Source: Massariosphaeria phaeospora (Eukaryota; Ascomycota; Dothideomycetes; Pleosporales). Taken from it: 64,000 nucleotides of DNA. The translations under genes and the position numbers were made by a program. The notes under the pieces are model-generated. The model was not told the DNA's origin. It made no database searches and was given only the letters and a program-made list of their open reading frames with translations. Below are positions 14,473 through 63,865 of the stretch, piece by piece. Positions within the stretch are counted from its first letter, which is position 1; each line of letters opens with the position of its first letter. The stretch lies in contig JAADJZ010000004.1 of assembly GCA_011032825.1 (NCBI GenBank), positions 1,798,001 through 1,862,000 of the forward strand. The letters are read 5' to 3'.

Positions 14473-15931
14473 GGCTGCGATGCTGCTGCTGTTCACGAGG
14501 AACGATGGGGAGGCCGCGCCTGGAATACAAATCGTCCTATGATTAGCGCGCAGACTACTAGTTATTCAGTCGACCGATTCCCCAGTGATCCAAAAAGTCC
14601 TGGACGTTGCGGAAGATATATGAACAACGAAGTCCTGGTCAGTTTCGTATGTCCCTGATACTCACACCAGACGTGAAAGATCTGAGAAAGAGCGCCATTG
14701 CGAGTGGAGTAGTTCCGGTGCGCGTAAAGCTAGCAGCTGGGGAATGGTGAAGGCGAAAATAACAGCGGAGGCAAGGAGGACGGTGGTATGTACTTGTGTC
14801 TGGACTTTGAACTAATTTGGGCCAGACCGTCGGCGGGAGCTAACCCGGCGATAACGATAAGAGAAACGCGGTGTGACACAACATTGATATTTCCACATCG
14901 CTGTTTCTCCTATCTACCATCTTCAGCGATGGATCATCGAGGTGAGTCTGAACGTGTTGTCGCATCGTACAGCGGCACCGAGGTTTGCAAAGGCGCGTAT
15001 TACCTACTAACCGAATAGGTACAGCTGCATTGCGTCATCAGCGGCATGATCAGCGTTACAGCAACACTATCCATATTTGTTGAGGGAGAGAATTCGAAGA
15101 CCAATCGCAGCGAAAGAACGAGTGCGCTTCAACTATGTTCCTCGAGGGACTTTGGACGGCGTATCTCACGTGACTAGCTGTTTTTCATCACGTGTAGCCA
15201 TATTGCGCCCTGAGCCATCTCAACATCTTTGTACTGAGACATAACCGACACGTTTGAATCCATGAGAGCAGGCAATCATCCCGCCATCTGCGTTTGCCGG
15301 CGCCGAAAGCAGCCTGGAATTCTCACTCCTCTAGCAGCGACACCGTCTCATCACAGACACGATGCTTTCTACGGTTGCTTTGCCTCCGCCGCTGGTTTGG
15401 TTTGTTTCATTTTGTTTTGTTACAAACCTCTGCTCTCAATCGGCCAGATTAAAGGAGTCTTTGCGGGAAGCTGCACGCCTAGCGCATGGATACGTGCAGC
15501 ACCACTTCTGGCTCCAGTCTCAGTCTTCGGCCTGTTGCAAACGGGATGGCACACCGCCTTCCAAATTAGTCCGTTTGTTCATACCGACACGGATTGCTGG
15601 GGAGACCTTTCCTGGCGCACCCGCGCCTTTGTTCCACCGCTCCTGACTGCACAGTTGGCATATTTATAGGCTTTGCCCGTACTTCTACTTTGCTACTTTG
15701 CTCTAGTTTTAGTTTCATTTCAGATCATTCCCTTCAGTGGTCTGTCGTCAAGCATATGCCCAGTAACGGCGGTTGTTCTTCCTCTCCACATCCAGGAATC
15801 TTCGGGTACGACTCCGCACCACATGCATACCTACACAAACGTTCGTCTAACTAAAGCATAGATCATCCGGTCCGCGACCACAACAGTCACACCCATCAAA
15901 TCCTCAATCTCTTACGGCTCCTTCATCCGAG
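14473..15931. other. Intergenic region with possible spliced small ORF
   Basis: About 1.45 kb between the SET gene (minus) and the next plus-strand gene. Two CACGTG palindromes lie near 15167 and 15189. A possible two-exon small ORF at 14929-15083 is listed separately. A 135-codon frame at 15262-15669 lacks domain features and is not called. Confidence 0.4.
14929..15083 (+). CDS. Possible spliced small ORF (25 codons)
   Basis: ATG-GAT-CAT-CGA-G is followed directly by GTGAGT; 77 bp later CTACTAAC and an AATAG acceptor resume the frame, which stops after 21 more codons. The splice signals are unusually complete. The encoded peptide (MDHRGTAALRHQRHDQRY...) matches nothing I know. It may be a 5' leader intron of a longer transcript or a short peptide gene; coding status is weak. 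Confidence 0.25.
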
Positions 15932-16534
15932 ATGGATCTCGAATCTGTCTGGCTCATCGTACTTCTCCTGGTCTACCTCTCCTGGTGGAAGTGGAAGGGC
16001 AAGTTCAGCATGGAATACATGCTGGAGTACCTCTTCGTGTACTGCAGCATGCTCCTATTCGACGAGGCGAGCCCTCCCCGCAGGGTCGGAACCATCGCCT
16101 GTTCCATCCTCGCACCTCTCATCTTCCACGCTTCCGGCTATCTGGATTTTCTCATCGCAAGCCTCTACGATGGGTTTCTTGGAGCGGGACCCGTACGCCC
16201 TGGCCAATCTGAACATCCGGAGATCGTAGTGGACAACGAGAATGCCCATGACTTCATGTCTCACCAGGCTGTACGCCCTGAGCCGAGACGCGCCAACGAG
16301 TCACGGCTTCTTGAGGAACTCAACCAGATGTTCCGAAGCCAACCCCCACACGAGAGAGCCGAACGGATGGAACTTCTTGAGCTCGAGCTTAAGCTTCTGA
16401 AGAACGTCCAGAAAGAGTCTATGCGCAACTGCAGACATCCTCGCCAGGGCTTACGGGTTGCCCCCGATCCGCTGCCCCTCAGAGAGAACGGACGAGGAAG
16501 GGGATTCAGGGACGATCATGACATCTTCTACTAA
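15932..16534 (+). CDS. Small membrane-anchored hypothetical protein
   Basis: Intronless, 200 residues, start GAGATGGAT. An N-terminal hydrophobic segment (SVWLIVLLLVYLSWW) and a second region (VGTIACSILAPLIFHASGYLDFLIASL) suggest two membrane passes. They are followed by a soluble tail with an amphipathic helix (RLLEELNQMFRSQPPHERAE, ELLELELKLLKNVQKE) and a basic Arg/Gly C-terminus. Family not recognised. Its 3' end faces the 6.3-kb repeat-module interval. Confidence 0.6.
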   Translation: MDLESVWLIVLLLVYLSWWKWKGKFSMEYMLEYLFVYCSMLLFDEASPPRRVGTIACSILAPLIFHASGYLDFLIASLYDGFLGAGPVRPGQSEHPEIVVDNENAHDFMSHQAVRPEPRRANESRLLEELNQMFRSQPPHERAERMELLELELKLLKNVQKESMRNCRHPRQGLRVAPDPLPLRENGRGRGFRDDHDIFY

Positions 16535-19500
16535 TGTTGCACTCGTAGCCGCAACACGCTGGGCTATAGGGCCACACCAAATGGGATGTGTGCATCTTTG
16601 AGACCTATTGGATCTTCTCTTTGGTGGACCAAACTACTATTTCTTATTTCTTTTCTTACACTCATTCATCGCTCTTGTACGGGTACGCCGATAATCAACC
16701 CGGGCGATGTCCATGGATTTATTCTAAAATGGGGTTTTTCTCACTTCTCGTATGTATGTCCTATGTCAATAATTCGGAGGAAACATACATGTGCGGATAT
16801 TGCACCTCGAATCAACATGGTATCGAATGCTCAAGAGGAGCCACATTTGTTCGAATCAACATGCTTGTAACCTTGGCATTATTTAGTCCAGCTAGTATCT
16901 TCATCTATTCAGAATAAAATGTCCCCGCTCAACTCATATGTTGACGATCATTTTCTGGGAACTCGATGCGATCGATTATGCCGAAAATTCAGCACGTGAC
17001 GCGTTGACAGACTCCCTCCCCATCGCTTGCGCCATGGAAGTTCCGAGGAGTGTATATAAGCACCTTATCTCTCACATATTTTCCACTTTCTACTACTTCC
17101 CACACAGGTTCCCCTCGACCTTTCTAAAAAAAAACCAGTTGCTTGCTGACATGAGGTCCGGAGCGTGCCTCTGCTTCCAACTCTACTAAAACCCGGAGCA
17201 ATTTCCGAAATGTGTGTCTCTCTCGGGTGAAAGAACAGCTTCACAACACAACTATGAGTTCGCGCCGGCTGGAAATCCAACGAGGAGGCTCCGATGTGTC
17301 CGGAACTTTGGGAAAGAACAAATGTTGATTGAAAGTTGAATGTCCAGTGTTTGGATTATACTGGTGGCGCTACATCTAAATTTGAAATAACATGTCAGAA
17401 ACATTATGCGTTTGAGACTCTAGAAAGACGAAATGAGGCTTATGATGTCTCGTCTGTGCTGTGGAGCGGACGTTTCGGTAGATGGACTCGTGGATATATA
17501 AGCCCTTCTTTCAACACTCAGGTTCCGGACTTCACTCGACCTCGCTACAAAGCTATTCTACTCTCTAAAACCGAGCATCCCGCCAACATATGCTGGAAGT
17601 CGTCTCTCTGGGTTACTAAAACAAGTAGCTCCTTCATTCATGTTTGGGGCTTTGCTTCCTTGGCGTTCTAAAAGTGATTCCTGGACCTAGGGATGTCGAG
17701 TCGCCAAAACCTACGAGAAACAATCGAAGGGCACGCGGAGTCGGACTCGTACATGACACTTAAAAACATTTACCGATTCATGCTATGAGAGTAGGCCGAC
17801 GCTTGACGTATTCATTTGGATATAAGAACTTAGTTCCAGATTATCATGGAACTGAGAAGATCGAACAACCTAGAATCTCTTCGGCCTTGCAAGTATGCAG
17901 ACATCCCCCTTATGACGAAAACACCTGGAAACCTTGTTTGTAAAGTCCGAAGATTGCGAGGCATTCCTTTAGGATCACGAAGTAATCGTACGCACCTTGA
18001 ACAAGCTTGGGTAATGAATCACCATGTGTGTGGTTTTTCGGTGCTGCAAAAAAAATTCTACTCATTCCATTCTATGCGTGATTCTGCAGTTTATTGCTAA
18101 AAATTACACTCTTGCGTTGCCATGTGCGCGGTGTCGAGACTCTGAAACAGGGGCATTGATGTGCTTTGTGGTGGGGGAGAAGGAAGAAGCACACTTGAAT
18201 CAATATCGAGATAATGAATATCGCAATGGCTCTTCCCAATGCCGTAAAGAAGGGGTATATAAGACCTCACTTTTTTCCTTCCCTCCGCTCCTCACGACAT
18301 TAGTTTAGTGGTTATCTTTGTCTGAAAAAACACCACACAAGCGATACATGGTTCTTGCGCGTCTTGCGGCGGCTCTAAAAACTGGAAGATATGTGTTAAT
18401 GGAAGTCCGGTGTTCTGCGGAAACTAAAAAGTGGATCACTGGTGTAATGTCTTTCAGTCAAAAACGGATTGTATAAGATCCACGTGCGGCAGCGGGATGC
18501 AACGCACTGTGGAAATTTGACATGTGGAAATATTGATTAAAATCCAACGACATAGACCCGATGTCCGACTTCGTCTCTGCTTCGTTCAACATCAAGTCAC
18601 GGTACCTTTTCTCGACAAATTGTTCTGGCTAGCTTTCCATGGATCTTAGTTGTCTTCTAAACAAAAGATATTATCCAAAAGACGTCATGTGGAGGGTTTC
18701 TCGTGTCGCTCAAGGTTAATACCAAGTCTACAAAGATGCTGAATGTCTAGAACATGCGCGGAAATGTACGAAAACGCTCAAGAATTGTGGACCAAACCTA
18801 CATCTTATTCCTATCTTCTTATTCAATAAAATGAACAAATCACCGCCTATTAAACCGATAAGTTCTTTCTCTGCGCTCGGATACCTATCGAATAAAACGA
18901 GAATACCATCGCGATATGTGTGGAAGTTTCGTATCAACGAAACCAAAAAAACTATACATTTCATACACACCCGGTTAAATCAGCGGTTCTGATACCATTG
19001 TCGTGATTCAAAAACTGCCTAACAGTATTACTATGGAAGGACTGGCCCTGGGCCCCTTGTCCACATCTACATTGAGTAACCTTCCGGGACAGACTTTGAA
19101 TCTTTTCGCATTATACGAATGACATCCCCAACAGCCTGGTCCATGTGTCCTTGTTCCTTTTCCTCCCGAAGTATTAAATCTTATGGAGCCAGCTACTATG
19201 CCCAAGATCGACGACTGAATTCCATCCCTCGTCGCATACATAACATGTTACCCCTCTTCAAAAGTAGAGGCAGTAATGACCGATGGTGTGTTTCCGTGTG
19301 GTCGCTGCATCGAATCCCCAGTCGCTTAACCCATGCGGAACCCTCATTTTCGAAACCATTAGCACACTCGTGGCATCCTTTGAGTTAAAAGGACAAAATT
19401 CAATGGTGGCGATGTTCATTAGAAATAACACTTCGAAGCCTCCTAAAAAGTTCACTGTGTTCGTTATGAACATTGGCCTGTGGCCTACGCAAGACAACAA

Positions 19501-22500
19501 AATTATAACAACATGAATGCATGGTGTGGAAACTCAGACGCTTACACTTCACTCAATGATAAACTCGGTCTTCGCTTACTTTATCCTCCTTTTATCACTC
19601 ATTTCACACATCCCGAAGTATACAACGTTCGTTATGATGTGCCCATGCTTCTCTCTCTGAGGCTGGATATGCTAGAGATATACAGCACTTGGTTTCATGT
19701 GCTCCGGACTTTTGCATCCTACTGAAGTCAAAACAAGCTGACGCCATTCCATGTGGAGCTCCAAGCCTCTCGAACTATTTGCTCTTCTTTATACTATATT
19801 CAACTTCCGCGCATCGAATCCAAAATCTGGAGTATAACGAATGTATGTGTGCGCTTCTCTCGTCGTGCAGCTCGACGTGACAAAAGTAGCACGATTCAAA
19901 ATCATGTGCTGCTTCCGGTTCCAGCAACGATTTGAGTACTACGACGCACCAGAGACCAAAAACACCGCAATCGCTACTGTATGTGGAGGTTCATCCTTGT
20001 CCCACCAACAATCAATATCCATCCTAAAGTTCAAGCCCCCCTCAACCTCTAAACTCTCTTTGTGTACACGGCAACTCCTCTTTTCACATTAAATTCAAAA
20101 AGACGCAGCCTCGCACTCATGTGGTTTTTTCTGGTCCCCCACAGCTCTATATCACAAATTAAAAAAACATGAAAAGCAGGCTACCATGTCCTGCTCCCGG
20201 CCCAGACTTGCACGAAATATCATGTAAAATTCTCGCTAAAATCAAACATCACTATAAAATGTGTTCTGTCCAACCCACGACAGATCGTCATATTAACATC
20301 CTCTTCGCATATATAATACCCCCTCTTGTCCTTGCTGTCTTCTCTCTACTTCACAACTATATCTCCATCGTACTATAAAAAGCTTCATGGCGACTGTTCA
20401 TGTGCCGTTCTCCTCTCTCTTCTGTGCAATACGATAAGTAGCAATGTCATGCGGTGTCTGACGCGGACAAAACAGCAGGCGAACTCGTTCATGTACTCTT
20501 TGACATAAAACAAGGCAAGCCTGCAAAACATGTGCTTTGCGCTTCCGGAAATTCTAGTCAAAATCGCTCGCAGATGTTCCTGGAAATCGAGCGTCCGTCT
20601 ACTAATGTCCGTCTCGATCTCCTGTCCGTGTTCTGCAATCAAAAATACTCAACCTGTTCCAAATGTGCTCTTCTTCTGTCTCTGCAGATAAAACAAGGCG
20701 GCACACATTGATGGTGTCGGGCGCGAACAAAATACCTAGCATCCAAGTTTACATGCTGTGCGACAAAAAACAAAGCGGCATACGTCCGAATGCTGCTCTC
20801 GGTTCCAGAAGCCCTTGCACCATATCACAATCATGTCCAAAAGCCGAGAACATTTGCTTCGATGTTGAATCTCGACGTCTTCCAGTGTCAAACTCACCGA
20901 CCACGCACTTCGCCTTACCTAACAAATCCGCATACAACCTTCCAACACGCCGCACCGTTTCAAATGTGCCTGTCCGTTTCTCTCTGCTGGTCATCGCACC
21001 AAAAGTCGCGTACCTCCCGTCCATGTGTGCGGCTCGCGGTGCGAAAACGGCTAGAAGATTGAAATATGAACTTAAAACAAAGAGGCTGGGATACATTTGG
21101 ATGTTGGACTCCGTGCGTGCGACGACTTCCCCAAAACTGGGGTCCAAAATCCAGATGCACGGTATATAGGCCCCCCCGTGATCCCTCTGCTCTTTCTCTA
21201 CTACACCACAAACTTCGACATCGGTCCTTCTAAATATGTTGAAGAAGTGCCACATGTGCGCTGCGATTCCGGTCTGCTGCGACACATAATAAAACCCGAA
21301 TACCTCCAAATCATGTGGTTGTTGTTCGCGGTTCCGAAAGAATCCCTACACATATTCATGATACCTAGAACCTAAACTCAAAACCATTACACCCATGGTA
21401 CATGTGGAGTTTCGCCAGAACATGCGTGATGATGAAATATTTCTGGAATCTGGCGGGAAGTCGTCCCGGCACATATATAAGCTATGAGCTCTTTCTCTAC
21501 ACCTTACTTCCCTTACACGGGCGGCAACCTCAACGTCGGGTCTTTTGAAAACGATTGCGCAATATTGCCATGTGGCTCCCCTTCTATTCTGCTGCTCAGC
21601 AACAGAATTGCTGCAGCTTATGAACATGTGCTTGCTGCTCGTGGCTCCAAAAATTATCCATCAATATTACATGTGAGGCAGCTGTGGAATGAAGCAAACC
21701 ACGAGATGATCGATGTGAGAGCGAAGACGAAAGCCACGTACATAAGCCCACAGCTCCTTCTCTCCCTTCTTCCGTCACGCGCTATCTTCGGGCTCTAGTC
21801 CTCTAAAACATCACAGCCGTACATATGATGTGTCTTGCCTTCTCTTTCGGCTCCCGAAAACTAAAACATTATCACACTTTCGATACGTGCTGTTCGCAGC
21901 CTTTGAAGAACTTTACACAACAAAACCATGGCTGGAGGATCTAAAAACACGGCTTAATACCACGTGATGACCACGGAGACGGGCGCATGTCATAGCCCAA
22001 GTATGGTGCGTCCTGCAACTGGCAGAAAGTACGCTACTATTCGAAAAGAACCACGGGGATCGATGTGTTGTATATAGGTCCCTAATCATCGACCTCTTCG
22101 CCTTTTCTTCCCTTCACATCAGGGACCTGTGCGTTCTCTCTAAAATTGACACAACAGTATATTCATGTCTTGCTCTCCAGCCCCATCTGGAAAACAAATA
22201 CTCTCTCTTCTGGGCAATGTGGAGGCGCTGGTCCTCTTCTGAATTTGAAAGCGCGCTGTCAATGCAGCGAAAATGCGCTATGGGCGATCTCATGGAAATG
22301 GCGCGGCGTGTGGACCAGAAGTCTTGACGTGGTCAATTCATGCAGCGTTGCGCAAAACTGAGATTAAAACGACTAGCCATGATTTGATGAGTGCAAGAAG
22401 TCGTTGTGGATTAAGCAGTGTGGATAAATAATACAAACTCGAACGTCTGGCATCCCATGTGGTCGGAATCTGGGGACGGCGCCTAACAATGGGTACATGA

Positions 22501-22844
22501 TTGTCCCCAATACCTAGACCTACTACCGTATGCAATCTGCTTCCGTCAAAAGTCACTGATGCAGTAAGAATGTGGATTAAGAATACCGGAAGTACTGCGC
22601 ATGTGGAGACCGGGCGGGCCACGGCAACTTCTCTAGAAACCGGAACACCGGCTTGTATATGTTTGCGGTGGTCGAGAATCTCTGTGGGGCGTAGTTCCTG
22701 CATAATCTACAAGCCGCAATCGGCAGCTGCAGTGGCTTATGTTGGAAGCGATCAGCGTGAAAGTGTATGGCATTCCAGGACATGTTTGAGTGCGATCAGA
22801 GCCTATCGTCTGCGCTAAAAAAGGGCCGGAGATGGACCTCATCC
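16535..22844 (+). repeat. 6.3-kb gene-free interval with degenerate TATA / CTAAAA / CATGTG modules
   Basis: No long conserved frame on either strand. From about 16.98 to 22.7 kb the plus strand repeats a loose pattern: TATATAAG or TATATAGG, a C/T-rich tract such as CTCTTTCTCTAC, a CTAAAA-like motif 63-77 bp after the TATA, and an ATG 86-98 bp after it. Eight modules fit (TATA at 17053, 17495, 18256, 20310, 21163, 21474, 21739, 22071). In addition CATGTG occurs about twenty times (for example 18023, 18521, 19903, 20529, 21253, 21569, 21624, 22452), often followed by a CTGCTTCCGG-like stretch and an A-run. The copies are too diverged for simple tandem repeats. Flanking genes converge on the interval, so ordinary promoters are not expected. 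Nature unknown: relict mini-gene array, non-coding RNA locus or clustered binding sites. Confidence 0.6.
21163..22167 (+). promoter_or_regulatory. Four consecutive core-promoter-like modules
   Basis: The clearest part of the array. TATATAGG 21163, TATATAAG 21474, TACATAAG 21739 and TATATAGG 22071 are 311, 265 and 332 bp apart. Each is followed by a C/T-rich tract, then CTAAATA 21240, TTGAAAA 21545, CTAAAA 21803 and CTAAAA 22140, then ATG at 21254, 21570, 21825/21828 and 22165. Two modules also share GATCGATGTG upstream (about 21708 and 22059). The TATA-ATG distance is similar to that of the dihydroxyacid dehydratase gene in this window (about 90 bp). Confidence 0.5.
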
Positions 22845-24515
22845 TCAGTCCTCCTCATCATCACTAGCAAGATCGAAGTCGTCCGTCTTCAGCATCCTCT
22901 CTCGGTCCTCCTCATCATTATCCGAGTTCCAGCCCTCTCGCGCAGCAACCTCCTTGACTTTATCCACCCTCCATCCCGGGTGGCTTGCGAACCATCGATC
23001 GATCTCTTCTAAGCTCTTGCCGGCAGTCTCCACGATGTAGTAGTACACAAACGGTACAAAGCTTGCGTTGAAAACCGCGTAGATCAGGTACAGCCCCCAG
23101 CCAAGATGATGTATACCGATCGGTGTAGTCTGCACAACGATGTAGTTGAACAGCCAGTCCGAAGCCGTCGCCAGCGCGGCTCCTTTGGACCGCATGGCCA
23201 ACGAGTTGATTTCGGCTGGGTACAGCCACGGCACTGTGATCCAGCCGAAACTGAAGGCGGTGAAATAGAGGAACATAAAAACCGTGGCGACGATTCCGGG
23301 TACGAGCCGCGAGGTGGGGTTTCCTTGACCGATGCCGACGGATATGGCGATGCCGAGGAATGCGACGGACATGCAGGCTGCGGAGGCCATGAGCAGGGGA
23401 CGTCGACCGACGCGTTCGATGACGAGGATGGAGAACCAGGTTGCGCTCATGAAGCAGAAGGCGTTGACTGTCGAGATCACGCGAGCGGTGAGTTCGGGAA
23501 GGCCGACGGAGCGCTGGAGAACGAGGGGTAGATAGTAGCATAGCACGTTGATGCCAGATAGCTGCTGTGCCATCTGCAATAGAACGCCCAAAGACATCCT
23601 TCGTGTTGCCTGACCTCCTGCGAACACCTGCTTCCACGAAGCCTTCGTCGCCTGCTCTAACCGCACCGACTCCTTGATCGTGTGAAACTCGTCCTGGACT
23701 TCGGCGTCGCTATCGCATAGGGCTTTGAGCACTACCTTCGCTTCGGCATCCCGTTGTCGCATCAAGAGCCATCGCGGGCTCTCCGGGAGAACCCATATCA
23801 TCGACAAGATAACCACGGAAAATAGAAGCTGAATGCCCAGTGGAAACCTCCATTGCGCGTCTCCTGTCGCTCCGCTAAAGACGAGAGTGATCACGTTACT
23901 CGCGACAAATCCGCCAACATTGACAGTCATCTCCTTGACCACGGCGCGGCCCTTCTCCTCACTCTTGCTGCACTCGACGTGCCAGACCGGCGCCGTGGCT
24001 GTGTTCCCGCCATTGCCAATGCCAGCTACAAATCTTCCCCACACCAACCAGTTTAGGTCCTGCGATACCGTCTGTATGACAATGCCGACCGTCATGATCA
24101 CGGTAGACAGCAGCAGCATCCACCGCCGCCCCAGCTTCTCGCCCACGAACGAGGACAGTATAGCGCCGAAAAAGCAGCCGAGATCGTAGACGGACGTGAC
24201 GAAGCCGAGGACGGGGAGCGAGGGGTCCTGGAAGAAGGTTAGAAAGGGCCGGCCGACCATGATGCCGCCAAACACCCCTTGCTCGTAGCCGAACAGGCAC
24301 ATCACGGTGCCCGCCGCAACGGATATGGCTGTGTGGAGACGCGGCCCGGCGAAGTAGTAGGGCGTGTTCGAGGAGCGGAACTGAGCCTCGCTATCATCGT
24401 GGTCTACATTGAGTCGTGAGCGAGGCCGTCCGGTGTGGTCGTCGCGGTGCTCGAGATGCGCGTCGGCGTTCAGCGGTTCGGCCTCAATGGAGGAGTGCAG
24501 AGGTGCGTAGGACAT
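22845..24515 (-). CDS. MFS sugar transporter
   Basis: Intronless, 556 residues, twelve predicted membrane segments. Diagnostic motifs are in order: GYEQGVFGGIMVGRPFL in TM1, VGEKLGRRWML in loop 2-3, PESPRWLLMRQRDAEA after TM6, QQLSGINVLCYYLP in TM7, VIERVGRRPLLM, VPWLYPAEINSLAMRSKG and ETAGKSLEEID after TM12. These mark the sugar porter family, proton-coupled hexose or related sugar uptake at the plasma membrane. The exact sugar cannot be read. The N-terminus (50-60 residues) and acidic C-terminus (DNDEEDRERMLKTDDFDLAS) are cytoplasmic. Start chosen at the first ATG (24515). Its 3' end converges with the repeat-module interval. Confidence 0.92.
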   Translation of the reverse strand: MSYAPLHSSIEAEPLNADAHLEHRDDHTGRPRSRLNVDHDDSEAQFRSSNTPYYFAGPRLHTAISVAAGTVMCLFGYEQGVFGGIMVGRPFLTFFQDPSLPVLGFVTSVYDLGCFFGAILSSFVGEKLGRRWMLLLSTVIMTVGIVIQTVSQDLNWLVWGRFVAGIGNGGNTATAPVWHVECSKSEEKGRAVVKEMTVNVGGFVASNVITLVFSGATGDAQWRFPLGIQLLFSVVILSMIWVLPESPRWLLMRQRDAEAKVVLKALCDSDAEVQDEFHTIKESVRLEQATKASWKQVFAGGQATRRMSLGVLLQMAQQLSGINVLCYYLPLVLQRSVGLPELTARVISTVNAFCFMSATWFSILVIERVGRRPLLMASAACMSVAFLGIAISVGIGQGNPTSRLVPGIVATVFMFLYFTAFSFGWITVPWLYPAEINSLAMRSKGAALATASDWLFNYIVVQTTPIGIHHLGWGLYLIYAVFNASFVPFVYYYIVETAGKSLEEIDRWFASHPGWRVDKVKEVAAREGWNSDNDEEDRERMLKTDDFDLASDDEED

Positions 24516-25134
24516 GGCAGTGGTGCGTTTGGTCGGCTTCGATAGCAATGCATCTGGGTTACAATCAGTGGGCAGTTCGGGGGTGGGGTGCGTGCTATGT
24601 GTGAGAGGTAGACAATAGGGGAGGATGTCGTTTGTCGTTCAACACACCTGGACAGCTTGGCGCCGGAGGTGATGCGGGCTTGGCGTTGGGTTTCATCGCG
24701 TCTCGCGCGAACGAACCGCGACACTTTCATCGCTACACCACCAGAAGAGTGTTCTTCCATCATCGCTCTCGACGACCTATGCATGCGCATCGAGTTGCGC
24801 ACATCTTAGACTCTCCAGTGACCAACTGGTCAACACACGCATTACTGCACGACGATCCCGGACTTTCTCTATCAAGCGTAGTGCAATGCTTCGATGACAT
24901 ATTCACAGTTTTGTTCTTCAATACTCCGTACAGCCTTCCAACACGCCCCATGTTTGGAATCTTAGCCTTGTCTTTGTGACTCTGCAACGCGCTGCTGATA
25001 CTGGTGCCGACACACTCAGACCCGCCACACAGGCTTTCACCTATACCCCGAGGCTCTACTGATCCAGTGACCATAACACCAACAAGCATGACTACAGACC
25101 ACTTTAATAATAGGGCCCTTCGAACCTTCTTCAG
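24516..25134. other. Intergenic region upstream of the sugar transporter
   Basis: About 620 bp with no supported gene; presumed promoter of the transporter and 3' flank of the small membrane-protein gene. Confidence 0.4.
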
Positions 25135-25531
25135 TCAATCATCGCATCCCTGTTCCGAGGTAGGCTGTACCGCTGCCTGTGGCGTTGAGACTGTAACTTC
25201 ACTGACATGTTCCTCTTCATCTGCACAATGCAGGTCGGTATACTGCAAAAACGATGTGTTGAAGCCACTGACCTTTCAACCCAGTTTGTCCCGTTCGCCC
25301 AAGGATAGCCGCAGCCAACAGCAGTCCTACCATTCCGATGATTATGGAAATGAGGCCAACGGTAATCGCGATGATGCTCTCACTTGACAGCCGCTGGGGA
25401 TCGTTTGTCAGATCAACCTCCAGTGCGACGGGTGCCAAAGGCTTCGGTGGCACAAAGGGGAGGGTTCCTACGAGGTACTAAGTTAGTTGTTCGATAATTG
25501 GGGCCGGTAACAACTTACTGTTTTCGAACAT
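25135..25531 (-). CDS. Small single-pass membrane protein (three exons)
   Basis: Exons 25531-25519, 25467-25273 and 25220-25135 join in frame to 97 residues. Introns are 51 and 52 bp with GTAAGT and GTCAGT donors, CTAAC-type branch sequence in the first, and TAG and CAG acceptors. Product: short N-terminus MFENRTLPFVPPKPLAPVAL, one membrane segment (IIAITVGLISIIIGMVGLLLA, about residues 45-66), a basic turn, and a soluble tail rich in Glu, Thr and Gln. No signal peptide is evident, so a tail-like or type III topology is likely. Small proteins of this plan are common in dothideomycetes but uncharacterised. Without splicing only the middle exon is visible. Confidence 0.68.
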
Positions 25532-25990
25532 GATAGCCTTGTCTATGGGGTGTGAAAACTGAACCAGACGGGATACCCAATTCGAGTTTGGTGTCGACTC
25601 GAGGATGTGTATCGCTTGTGTTTGGGATGGCCGGGTTCTTTTATATTGACAGACGTTGGAGCCAGAAGAACCTACGAAGCGCTATCCCGCAGAATATCGA
25701 GGCCCGGTCCTGTGCACTTTCCCTAGCCGCAGTTCATCTTGCGGGTCGCCATTATGATATAAACAGCTGCAGAAGAGCCGATCGGCTGAATCGTGACAGT
25801 TCGATGTCAGCAGGAATAGCCAAGTATCGTCAGAGTAGGAATCTTGGGAAGAGTGTCCCTGGATGCTAACTTGGAAGAAGCCTTCAGCGACCTCGCATAT
25901 TCCTACAAGTTCCTAACGGCAGCCAAATGCTCGAAGATCCTACAAATTCCTGACGGTAGACCCACGCGATGGTTCTCACAAGACACTGGG

Positions 25991-26160
25991 CATGGAGATC
26001 GAGCACGGCCGTACATCCAGGACAAGGCGCAGGCCAGTCACCGAATTCGTATTTCCACGAGCCGAGTCCGGTCATTTGGCTGTGGTGGCGGTAGGAATTG
26101 GCAAAACCGCTGGAGTACATCGAGATCGAGCACGGCCGTTGATCCAGGACAAGGCGCAAG
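25991..26160 (+). repeat. Direct repeat pair, 127-bp offset
   Basis: GAGATCGAGCACGGCCGT followed by ATCCAGGACAAGGCGCA starts at 25995 and again at 26122, with only a few differences over about 42 bp. The sequence between the copies is not repeated as clearly. Confidence 0.7.
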
Positions 26161-63394: not shown

Positions 63395-63598
63395 CTATAA
63401 TCATGTCACGGTTTAGAGTCTCTCCTACCTCACGTGTAGTGGCGCCTCACCTACGCTGAGGTGCGACTACCTATCCTGCACTAGCGCTGTTTACAGCCAC
63501 TCATGTATATCTACGTTCGTAGCTACACACAATACAACCTCAGTTCAATCCTCAATTCCCTACGCACTGCTTGCACTCACCCTGACAAATCACTTTCA

Positions 63599-63865
63599 GT
63601 TAGCTCGAAATCTTGTTGGCAAAAGAGAGGGGGATATAGACAGGGTACTCAAGGCCATTCAAGAGAAGAAAGGATATACGTACGCGGCGGCGGGTGGTGG
63701 GTGGTGGGCGGCGGTCTATGATCACTCTCAGTTAGCTCGAAATCTCATTGGCAAAAGACAGAGGAGTATAGACAGGAGACTCGAGATCATCCAATAAAAG
63801 AAAGGGTATACTTACGCTGCGGCGGGCGGTGGGCTGGTGGGCGGTGGTGGTCGCGGTGGTGGCTA
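63599..63865 (+). repeat. Tandem duplication of an approx. 130-bp unit
   Basis: AGTTAGCTCGAAATCT starts at 63599 and 63729. Each copy continues with TTGGCAAAAGA, TATAGACAGG, AAAGAAAGG/AAGAAAGGATATAC and ends in a GGCGG-rich stretch. On the minus strand each copy contains an exon-like GCCGCC/CACC block followed by GTAAGT or GTACGT. Confidence 0.85.

What the first reader, a model, noticed from the sequence alone, without database searches (positions are those of the whole stretch)
16980..22800. Gene-free interval built from degenerate TATA / CTAAAA / CATGTG modules
Nearly 6 kb between two convergent genes has no conserved coding frame, yet the plus strand repeats one loose architecture again and again. 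Simple satellite DNA would be more uniform and random spacer would not repeat. A relict or active array of tiny transcription units, a non-coding RNA locus or a large binding-site cluster would each be new. Nothing I know of in fungi matches it.
Basis: seen in the sequence. Interest (0 to 1): 0.85.

Follow-up and report, generated by a model that had tools for sequence, protein, structure and literature searches.

The report
Fungal arrays of tiny guide-like units
A gene-poor stretch of a mould genome is one of many one-directional arrays of tiny promoter-led units, in which an 18-letter segment of fixed length but fast-changing sequence sits between two fixed tags; it looks like an undescribed library of short RNAs, though no RNA data were at hand to prove it.

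Summary
The core is a two-box unit of fixed spacing, AAAA-18 nt-ATG: 45 in the interval on the plus strand, 0 on the minus; 500 dinucleotide shuffles average 3.3, maximum 10. Each of eight TATA boxes has an ATG 89-98 nt downstream. Arrays of this unit recur in the same 42-Mb genome (Massariosphaeria phaeospora by an identical neighbouring protein). In 22 stretches chosen for the motif I found 26 arrays: 106 kb, 711 units, 20 on the other strand. TATATAAG + TAAAA + ATG occurs 193 times genome-wide, 1 in the control. Units are phased to the TATA box at about +93 and +145. No coding frame; no Pfam or Rfam match in the interval.

New: in duplicated copies in other arrays the 18-nt spacer differs more than its surroundings (identity 0.56 versus 0.74; lower in 32 of 38 independent pairs), while its G+C content is unusually uniform. 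Best reading: clusters of tiny transcription units making short RNAs with variable, guide-like segments. Transcription, processing and targets are not shown. Main rival: arrays of two-box protein-binding sites with a free spacer.

The parts
16938..22602 (+). the array: 45 strict units (AAAA-18 nt-ATG) and 8 TATA boxes, all on the plus strand
17053..17153 (+). transcription unit 1: TATATAAG 17053, first-unit ATG 17151 (+98), next ATG 17210
17495..17592 (+). transcription unit 2: TATATAAG 17495, ATG 17590 (+95), next 17640
18256..18350 (+). transcription unit 3: TATATAAG 18256, ATG 18348 (+92), next 18399, 18447
20310..20402 (+). transcription unit 4: TATATAAT 20310, ATG 20400 (+90), later units to 20862
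21163..21256 (+). transcription unit 5: TATATAGG 21163, ATG 21254 (+91; its A box is TAAAT, so it is not among the 45 strict units), next 21313, 21402
21474..21572 (+). transcription unit 6: TATATAAG 21474, ATG 21570 (+96), next 21671
21739..21830 (+). transcription unit 7: TACATAAG 21739 (variant box), ATG 21828 (+89)
22071..22167 (+). transcription unit 8: TATATAGG 22071, ATG 22165 (+94)
15851..16534 (+). left neighbour: open frame matching hypothetical protein BDV95DRAFT_287728 of Massariosphaeria phaeospora, same direction as the array
22845..24638 (-). right neighbour: sugar transporter (Sugar_tr), facing the array (tail to tail)

Best explanation
The interval is one of many clusters of tiny RNA-polymerase-II-type transcription units, all reading one way. 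SHOWN in sequence: a TATA box (often TATATAAGCCCC), a CT-rich stretch with a start-site-like CTACAC around +40, then at about +93 an ATG preceded by AAAA with 18 (+/-1) nt between them; further AAAA-N18-ATG units follow about 50-60 nt apart. In tandem copies the 18-nt spacer differs more than its surroundings, keeps its length, and has an unusually uniform G+C content. INFERRED: the units are transcribed into short non-coding RNAs; AAAA and (C)AUG are processing or loading signals that define a short segment; the segment is a variable guide that pairs with other nucleic acid, perhaps through the Argonaute proteins, of which the genome has an ample set. The clusters would then work like nematode piRNA clusters: many small units, fixed signals, diverse products.
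For: Fixed spacing: AAAA->ATGTG offset 22 85 v mean 5.1; also for endings not used to choose the loci: ATGG 147 v 15.4, ATGA 67 v 10.7, ATGC 35 v 8.7, no such peak on the other strand. One-strandedness: 711 v 20 units in 26 arrays; in 76 kb of non-array parts of the same loci 26 v 33. Phasing to TATA: of 97 TATA boxes, units at +80..+109 number 67, +110..+129 4, +130..+159 39, -20..+79 3; a TATA lies at -112..-80 of 79 of 296 leading units, of 19 of 441 non-leading units, and at a control offset of 10 of 296. Genome: TATATAAGN{52,80}TAAAAN{17,19}ATG 193 v control 1. Not coding: no frame or phase effect after the ATG in 708 units. Spacer turnover: 38 independent duplicate pairs, spacer 0.563 v flank 0.736 (32 of 38, p 4e-6) and v other interior 18-mers 0.718 (32 of 37, p 2e-7); in L035 ten units about 60 bp apart share ATG+0..+14 at mean 0.76 but spacers at 0.33 (random spacer pairs 0.26). 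G+C of spacers under-dispersed: variance ratio 0.81, 0 of 3000 column permutations as low; below the +14..+32 window in 999 of 1000 bootstraps over loci. RNAi genes: PIWI domain at 9 places, RdRP at 5.
Against: No RNA data. No target found: spacers show no excess matches or complementarity to their neighbourhood, to other array DNA or the rest of the window, or to an rDNA relic; 2 spacers of 737 tried have no second match in the genome at <=1 mismatch. No hairpin around the units and only a weak, partial excess of a hairpin before the first unit. With selection on one flank only, the spacer effect shrinks: independent pairs 0.465 v 0.525 (p 0.086) and 0.508 v 0.602 (p 0.029); in 16 full-period alignments the spacer is below 'rest' in 6 of 9 and below near flanks in 10 of 11. 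Spacer turnover could not be tested in the window's own array, which has no alignable duplicates. 217 of 296 leading units have no TATA of the form sought. G+C is also somewhat under-dispersed upstream (ratio 0.85-0.89 in some windows).
Confidence: 0.42

Rival explanations
1. DNA-level rival: each unit is a two-box binding site for a protein (or pair) touching AAAA and (C)ATG two helical turns apart; the spacer is free to drift, the rest is recent duplicate. Polar arrays of such sites between convergent genes could block transcription or replication in one direction, or nucleate chromatin.
For: Spacing of 21-23 bp with +/-1 jitter is typical of two-box DNA sites; arrays lie tail to tail with the next gene in 6 of 6 cases where a Pfam-recognised gene was placed downstream; a free spacer explains its divergence if everything else is constrained.
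Against: Phasing to a TATA box and near absence of units from -20 to +79 points to transcription units. Non-motif flanks stay near 0.72-0.74 identical although they are not shared between arrays, so general constraint on them is not expected. Uniform spacer G+C is not expected of a wholly free spacer.
Confidence: 0.27
2. Long or short non-coding RNAs whose repeated AAAA-N18-AUG units are sites for an RNA-binding protein (sponge) or repeated RNA-processing sites; the sequence between does not matter.
For: Same architecture data; repeated units about 50-60 nt apart downstream of a promoter.
Against: A rigid 18-nt spacing without local structure is unusual for RNA-binding proteins (inference); does not explain uniform spacer G+C.
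Confidence: 0.18
3. Remains of protein genes, transposons or an ordinary satellite, the motifs being chance or inheritance from a repeated ancestor without present function.
For: Arrays do arise by tandem duplication; RIP-like decay exists in this genome.
Against: No Pfam match in six frames of the interval, no homologue of its plus-strand ORF, no reading-frame signal, shuffles far below, boxes kept while the sequence between them is lost.
Confidence: 0.08

Closest known systems
Nematode type I piRNA (21U-RNA) clusters
   Same: Clusters of very many small, sequence-diverse units with a fixed promoter-linked motif at a set distance; the number of loci is large and product sequence is free to vary (PMC6436959, passages seen; others by search listing).
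   Different: [quoted passage not shown] here TATA-led units carry one to several spacers bounded on both sides by boxes, in single-strand arrays of about 1.5-9 kb. No small RNA, no Piwi loading shown.
CRISPR arrays
   Same: Conserved repeat and unrelated spacers of fixed length in tandem, clearest in L035 5718-6276.
   Different: Fungal nuclear genome; spacer 18 nt; repeats differ between arrays and decay within them; many internal promoters; no effector identified, and the TnpB/Cas12f-like Zn-ribbon family PF07282 gave no match in the genome. A likeness of CTAAAAC before the spacer to Cas13a repeats is recalled only.
Fungal milRNA / siRNA loci
   Same: RNAi genes are present.
   Different: No hairpin or inverted-repeat precursor around units (one search lists only short imperfect pairs).
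Box C/D and H/ACA snoRNA clusters
   Same: Short guide segment beside fixed boxes, clustered genes (recalled).
   Different: No Rfam match; no stem enclosing the guide; spacers are not conserved.

Membership tests
Nematode-type piRNA clusters | clustered, sequence-diverse small units with a motif at fixed distance | tested here: met
Nematode-type piRNA clusters | Ruby/SNAPc-type motif upstream of the small RNA | tested here: not met
   unsupervised motif search and k-mer lists gave TATA, CT-rich, CTACAC, AAAA, ATG only; no scan with the Ruby motif itself
Nematode-type piRNA clusters | small RNAs bound to a Piwi/Argonaute protein | not testable with these tools
   no sequencing data; PIWI-domain genes exist
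CRISPR array | near-identical repeats with unique spacers of constant length | tested here: inconclusive
   seen in L035; elsewhere repeats are diverged; spacer length 18 +/-1
CRISPR array | effector or adaptation genes | tested here: inconclusive
   only PF07282 was searched, no match; other Cas families not searched
OMEGA/Fanzor guide RNA | TnpB/Fanzor gene in the genome | tested here: not met
   PF07282 no match; other Fanzor models not searched
milRNA/hairpin small RNA | stem enclosing the unit | tested here: not met
   matched arms -10.37 v mismatched -10.83 kcal/mol in 308 units
Known RNA family (Rfam) | covariance-model match | tested here: not met
   one sub-threshold match, E 3.7, on 14500-26000; other arrays not scanned
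Protein-coding gene or transposon | open frame with homology | tested here: not met
Simple satellite / tandem repeat | uniform head-to-tail copies | tested here: not met
   no Tandem Repeats Finder row in 16980-22800; no self-alignable copies in the window array

The most novel reading that the evidence does not exclude
A fungal nuclear genome carries of the order of a hundred one-directional arrays of TATA-led micro-genes that together encode thousands of short guide RNAs, each an 18-22-nt segment bounded by AAAA and AUG, diversified by rapid spacer turnover: a eukaryotic guide-RNA library analogous in logic to piRNA clusters or CRISPR arrays but of separate origin, possibly feeding an enlarged Argonaute set.
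Probability: 0.28. Interest if true: 0.97.

Novelty: categorically new. Interest (0 to 1): 0.86.

Why it matters
If the units are transcribed guides, a filamentous fungus has its own piRNA- or CRISPR-like guide library, which would be a new genome-encoded targeting system and would make the open question of what fungal Argonautes beyond classical quelling do directly testable. Even under the DNA-binding rival, about a hundred polar arrays of a rigid two-box site between convergent genes would be a new kind of fungal chromosome element.

Tried and rejected
RNA hairpin enclosing each unit: rejected. Hairpin before the first unit: only a weak excess (15 of 64 strong stems v 7.5 in shuffles; t -4.6 on 76 units, a few counted twice through alternative anchors); kept as a possibility for some arrays. 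Coding or tiny start codons: no frame effect, and A is not enriched at -3. Poly(A) sites: spacing resembles hexamer-to-cleavage distance, but jitter is +/-1 and the spacer is T-poor at -11..-9; judged unlikely from recalled knowledge. Meiotic DSR motif (UNAAAC, recalled): depleted, 4 v 9 expected. Spacer pairing with own neighbourhood, shared spacer words, rDNA relic: none. Fanzor-like effector: no PF07282. Viral contigs: 2 single matches in the whole collection, taken as chance. The looser genome pattern AAAAN{17,19}ATGTG is hardly above its backward control (1282 v 1172); only its clustering on contig C1 is informative. Literature: nine searches answered found nothing describing such arrays; passages of one paper were read, the rest are listings. 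Full-text coverage is limited to open-licence papers.

Full report
OBSERVATION. The interval was tested against dinucleotide-preserving shuffles: CATGTG 20 plus / 1 minus (2.2 expected), CTAAAA 14 / 0 (3.7), TATATAAG 4 / 0 (0.05). An expectation-maximisation motif search without preset motifs returned AAAA, 17 variable bases, CATGTG. The offset between AAAA and ATGTG is 22 in 14 pairs, where the mean over offsets is 0.6. With a unit defined as AAAA within -23..-18 of an ATG, the interval holds 45 on the plus and 0 on the minus strand, the other 57.9 kb of the window 11 and 1, and 500 shuffles of the interval average 3.3 with a maximum of 10. The composite AAAA-N17-CATGT occurs 12 times in the window, all in the interval and on the plus strand.

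NOT A GENE OR KNOWN ELEMENT. The interval matches only itself in its genome. Six-frame translations with stops masked match no Pfam family; the plus-strand ORF has no homologue but itself; Rfam gives one sub-threshold match; no tRNA gene was found in the window and no tandem-repeat row falls in the interval. The neighbours are a hypothetical gene on the plus strand and a sugar transporter on the minus strand. The transporter is identical to a protein of Massariosphaeria phaeospora whose contig has the length of C34, 2,182,507 bases, so the host is a Pleosporales fungus.

GENOME-WIDE. AAAA-N17-CATGTG occurs 174 times against 50 for its backward control (100 places listed) and visibly in same-strand clusters. 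I fetched 20 stretches around such clusters and one from a TATA-based search; these were chosen for the motif, so counts of CATGTG-type units in them are biased. Counts not used for the choice agree: AAAA to ATGG at offset 22 147 v mean 15.4, ATGA 67 v 10.7, ATGC 35 v 8.7, with no peak on the other strand. Each of the 22 stretches, the window included, holds at least one array; 26 clusters of six or more units cover 105.6 kb with 711 units against 20 on the opposite strand, while 76 kb of non-array sequence in the fetched loci has 26 and 33. A stricter, independent pattern, TATATAAGN{52,80}TAAAAN{17,19}ATG, occurs 193 times, its backward control once; TATATAAGN{72,96}CATGTG 23 v 5. A looser pattern is uninformative in total, 1282 v 1172, though its listed hits on C1 fall in about seven same-strand clusters. 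About a hundred arrays per genome is my extrapolation from that 3-Mb contig.

ARCHITECTURE. Relative to 97 TATA-type boxes on the array strand, unit ATGs are nearly absent from -20 to +79 (3), peak at +80..+109 (67), fall at +110..+129 (4), peak again at +130..+159 (39) and more broadly at +170..+209 (28); 63 of 97 boxes have a unit at +84..+106, against 1 of 19 on the other strand. All eight boxes in the window (four of them variants of TATATAAG, picked after seeing the pattern) have an ATG at +89..+98. Conversely a TATA lies at -112..-80 of 79 of 296 leading units, 10 of 296 at a control offset, and 19 of 441 non-leading units; so most leading units lack this form of the box, and arrays differ (for example 15 of 23 in L045, 0 of 9 in L042). 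Between box and unit lie a CT-rich stretch and CTACAC-like words, TCTACA at a median of +42. Successive units are often 40-65 nt apart. After the ATG there is a short A-poor, G/T-rich stretch.

SPACER. Within arrays, copies arise by tandem duplication, in direct orientation far more often than inverted. In 38 independent pairs of homologous units spacer identity is 0.563, flanks 0.736, other interior 18-mers 0.718 (32 of 38 and 32 of 37 lower; Wilcoxon 4e-6 and 2e-7). Local alignments may be biased, so I also chose pairs by one flank only and compared the spacer with the far flank: all pairs n=140, p 7e-7, and n=49, p 0.009 (not independent); independent n=51, p 0.086, and n=34, p 0.029. In 16 alignments spanning a full repeat period the spacer is below the near flank in 10 of 11 and below the rest in 6 of 9. 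In L035 ten units about 60 bp apart share ATG+0..+14 at 0.76 but their spacers at 0.33. Recent duplicates exist with identical spacers (L041), so spacers diverge after copying rather than always being inserted anew. The window array, L036, L039 and L051 gave no alignable copies. G+C counts of spacers vary less than expected: ratio 0.81, below all 3000 column permutations (lowest 0.813); the +14..+32 window has 0.99, and spacer < control in 999 of 1000 bootstraps over loci; upstream windows are in between (0.83-0.95). 730 of 737 spacers are distinct.

NEGATIVE RESULTS. No pairing of arms around units, none of spacers with their neighbourhood, no excess of spacer words elsewhere in the arrays or the rest of the window, none against an rDNA relic, no second genomic match for 2 spacers tried, no reading frame, no TnpB-type Zn ribbon.

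CONTEXT. Where a Pfam-recognised gene could be placed downstream of an array it faces the array in 6 of 6 cases (window, L033, L042, L044, L045, L053); upstream neighbours run with the array in 6 of 7 (window, L032, L033, L038, L041, L051; not L047); L037, whose upstream neighbour is a transposase frame, and L050 were not counted. Of 20 flanking or overlapping frames scanned, 14 had a Pfam family, mostly housekeeping or transport genes, with two DDE_1 transposases. Six open frames of 230 aa or more lie in arrays (L037, L039, L043, L044, L048, L049); two were scanned without a match, so 'gene-free' is not proved for every array. The genome has PIWI domains at nine places and RdRP at five.

INTERPRETATION. 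TATA phasing argues for transcription units; fixed length, high divergence and uniform G+C of the spacer argue for a segment whose pairing strength matters while its sequence is meant to vary. I therefore favour short guide-like RNAs (0.42), over two-box DNA sites (0.27), protein-binding or processing sites in RNA (0.18) and relics (0.08). [quoted passage not shown] Nine literature searches found no account of such arrays.

Noticed in passing
G000:C23:1474287-1474440 (locus L052): The only 5.8S rRNA match in the genome search looks heavily C-to-T / G-to-A changed against the recalled 5.8S sequence, as repeat-induced point mutation would leave it; the intact rDNA seems absent from the assembly.
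   Followed up: no
own genome, contigs C4, C12, C15, C27, C30, C48: PIWI domain in 14 pieces at nine places, three of the pieces with two or more stops inside or broken frames at C15 and C30; more than the two Argonautes recalled for Neurospora.
   Followed up: no
locus L039 7000-9001 (C8:596-598 kb): A second array on the opposite strand begins beside the one described: 11 units in the first 2 kb of the array-oriented sequence on the other strand, with a TATATAAG-CATGTG match at C8:596991.
   Followed up: partly
G000:C1 222003, 287198, 653247, 2972726: A nearly identical word around GTGTTCGGCGAACC(T)ATGTG recurs at dispersed single places in the pattern list; perhaps the end of a short dispersed repeat.
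   Followed up: no
window 63589-63848: Two tandem copies of a 132-bp repeat, 83% alike.
   Followed up: no
L045, L048, L050, upstream of TATA boxes: Words such as TGATGATG lean to the array strand (27 v 7 in 26 arrays) and lie about 40-140 nt before the next TATA box; possibly the 3' end of the units.
   Followed up: partly
L037:7260-8999 and L051:6415-7509: DDE_1 (Tc5/pogo-like) transposase frames lie near two arrays.
   Followed up: no
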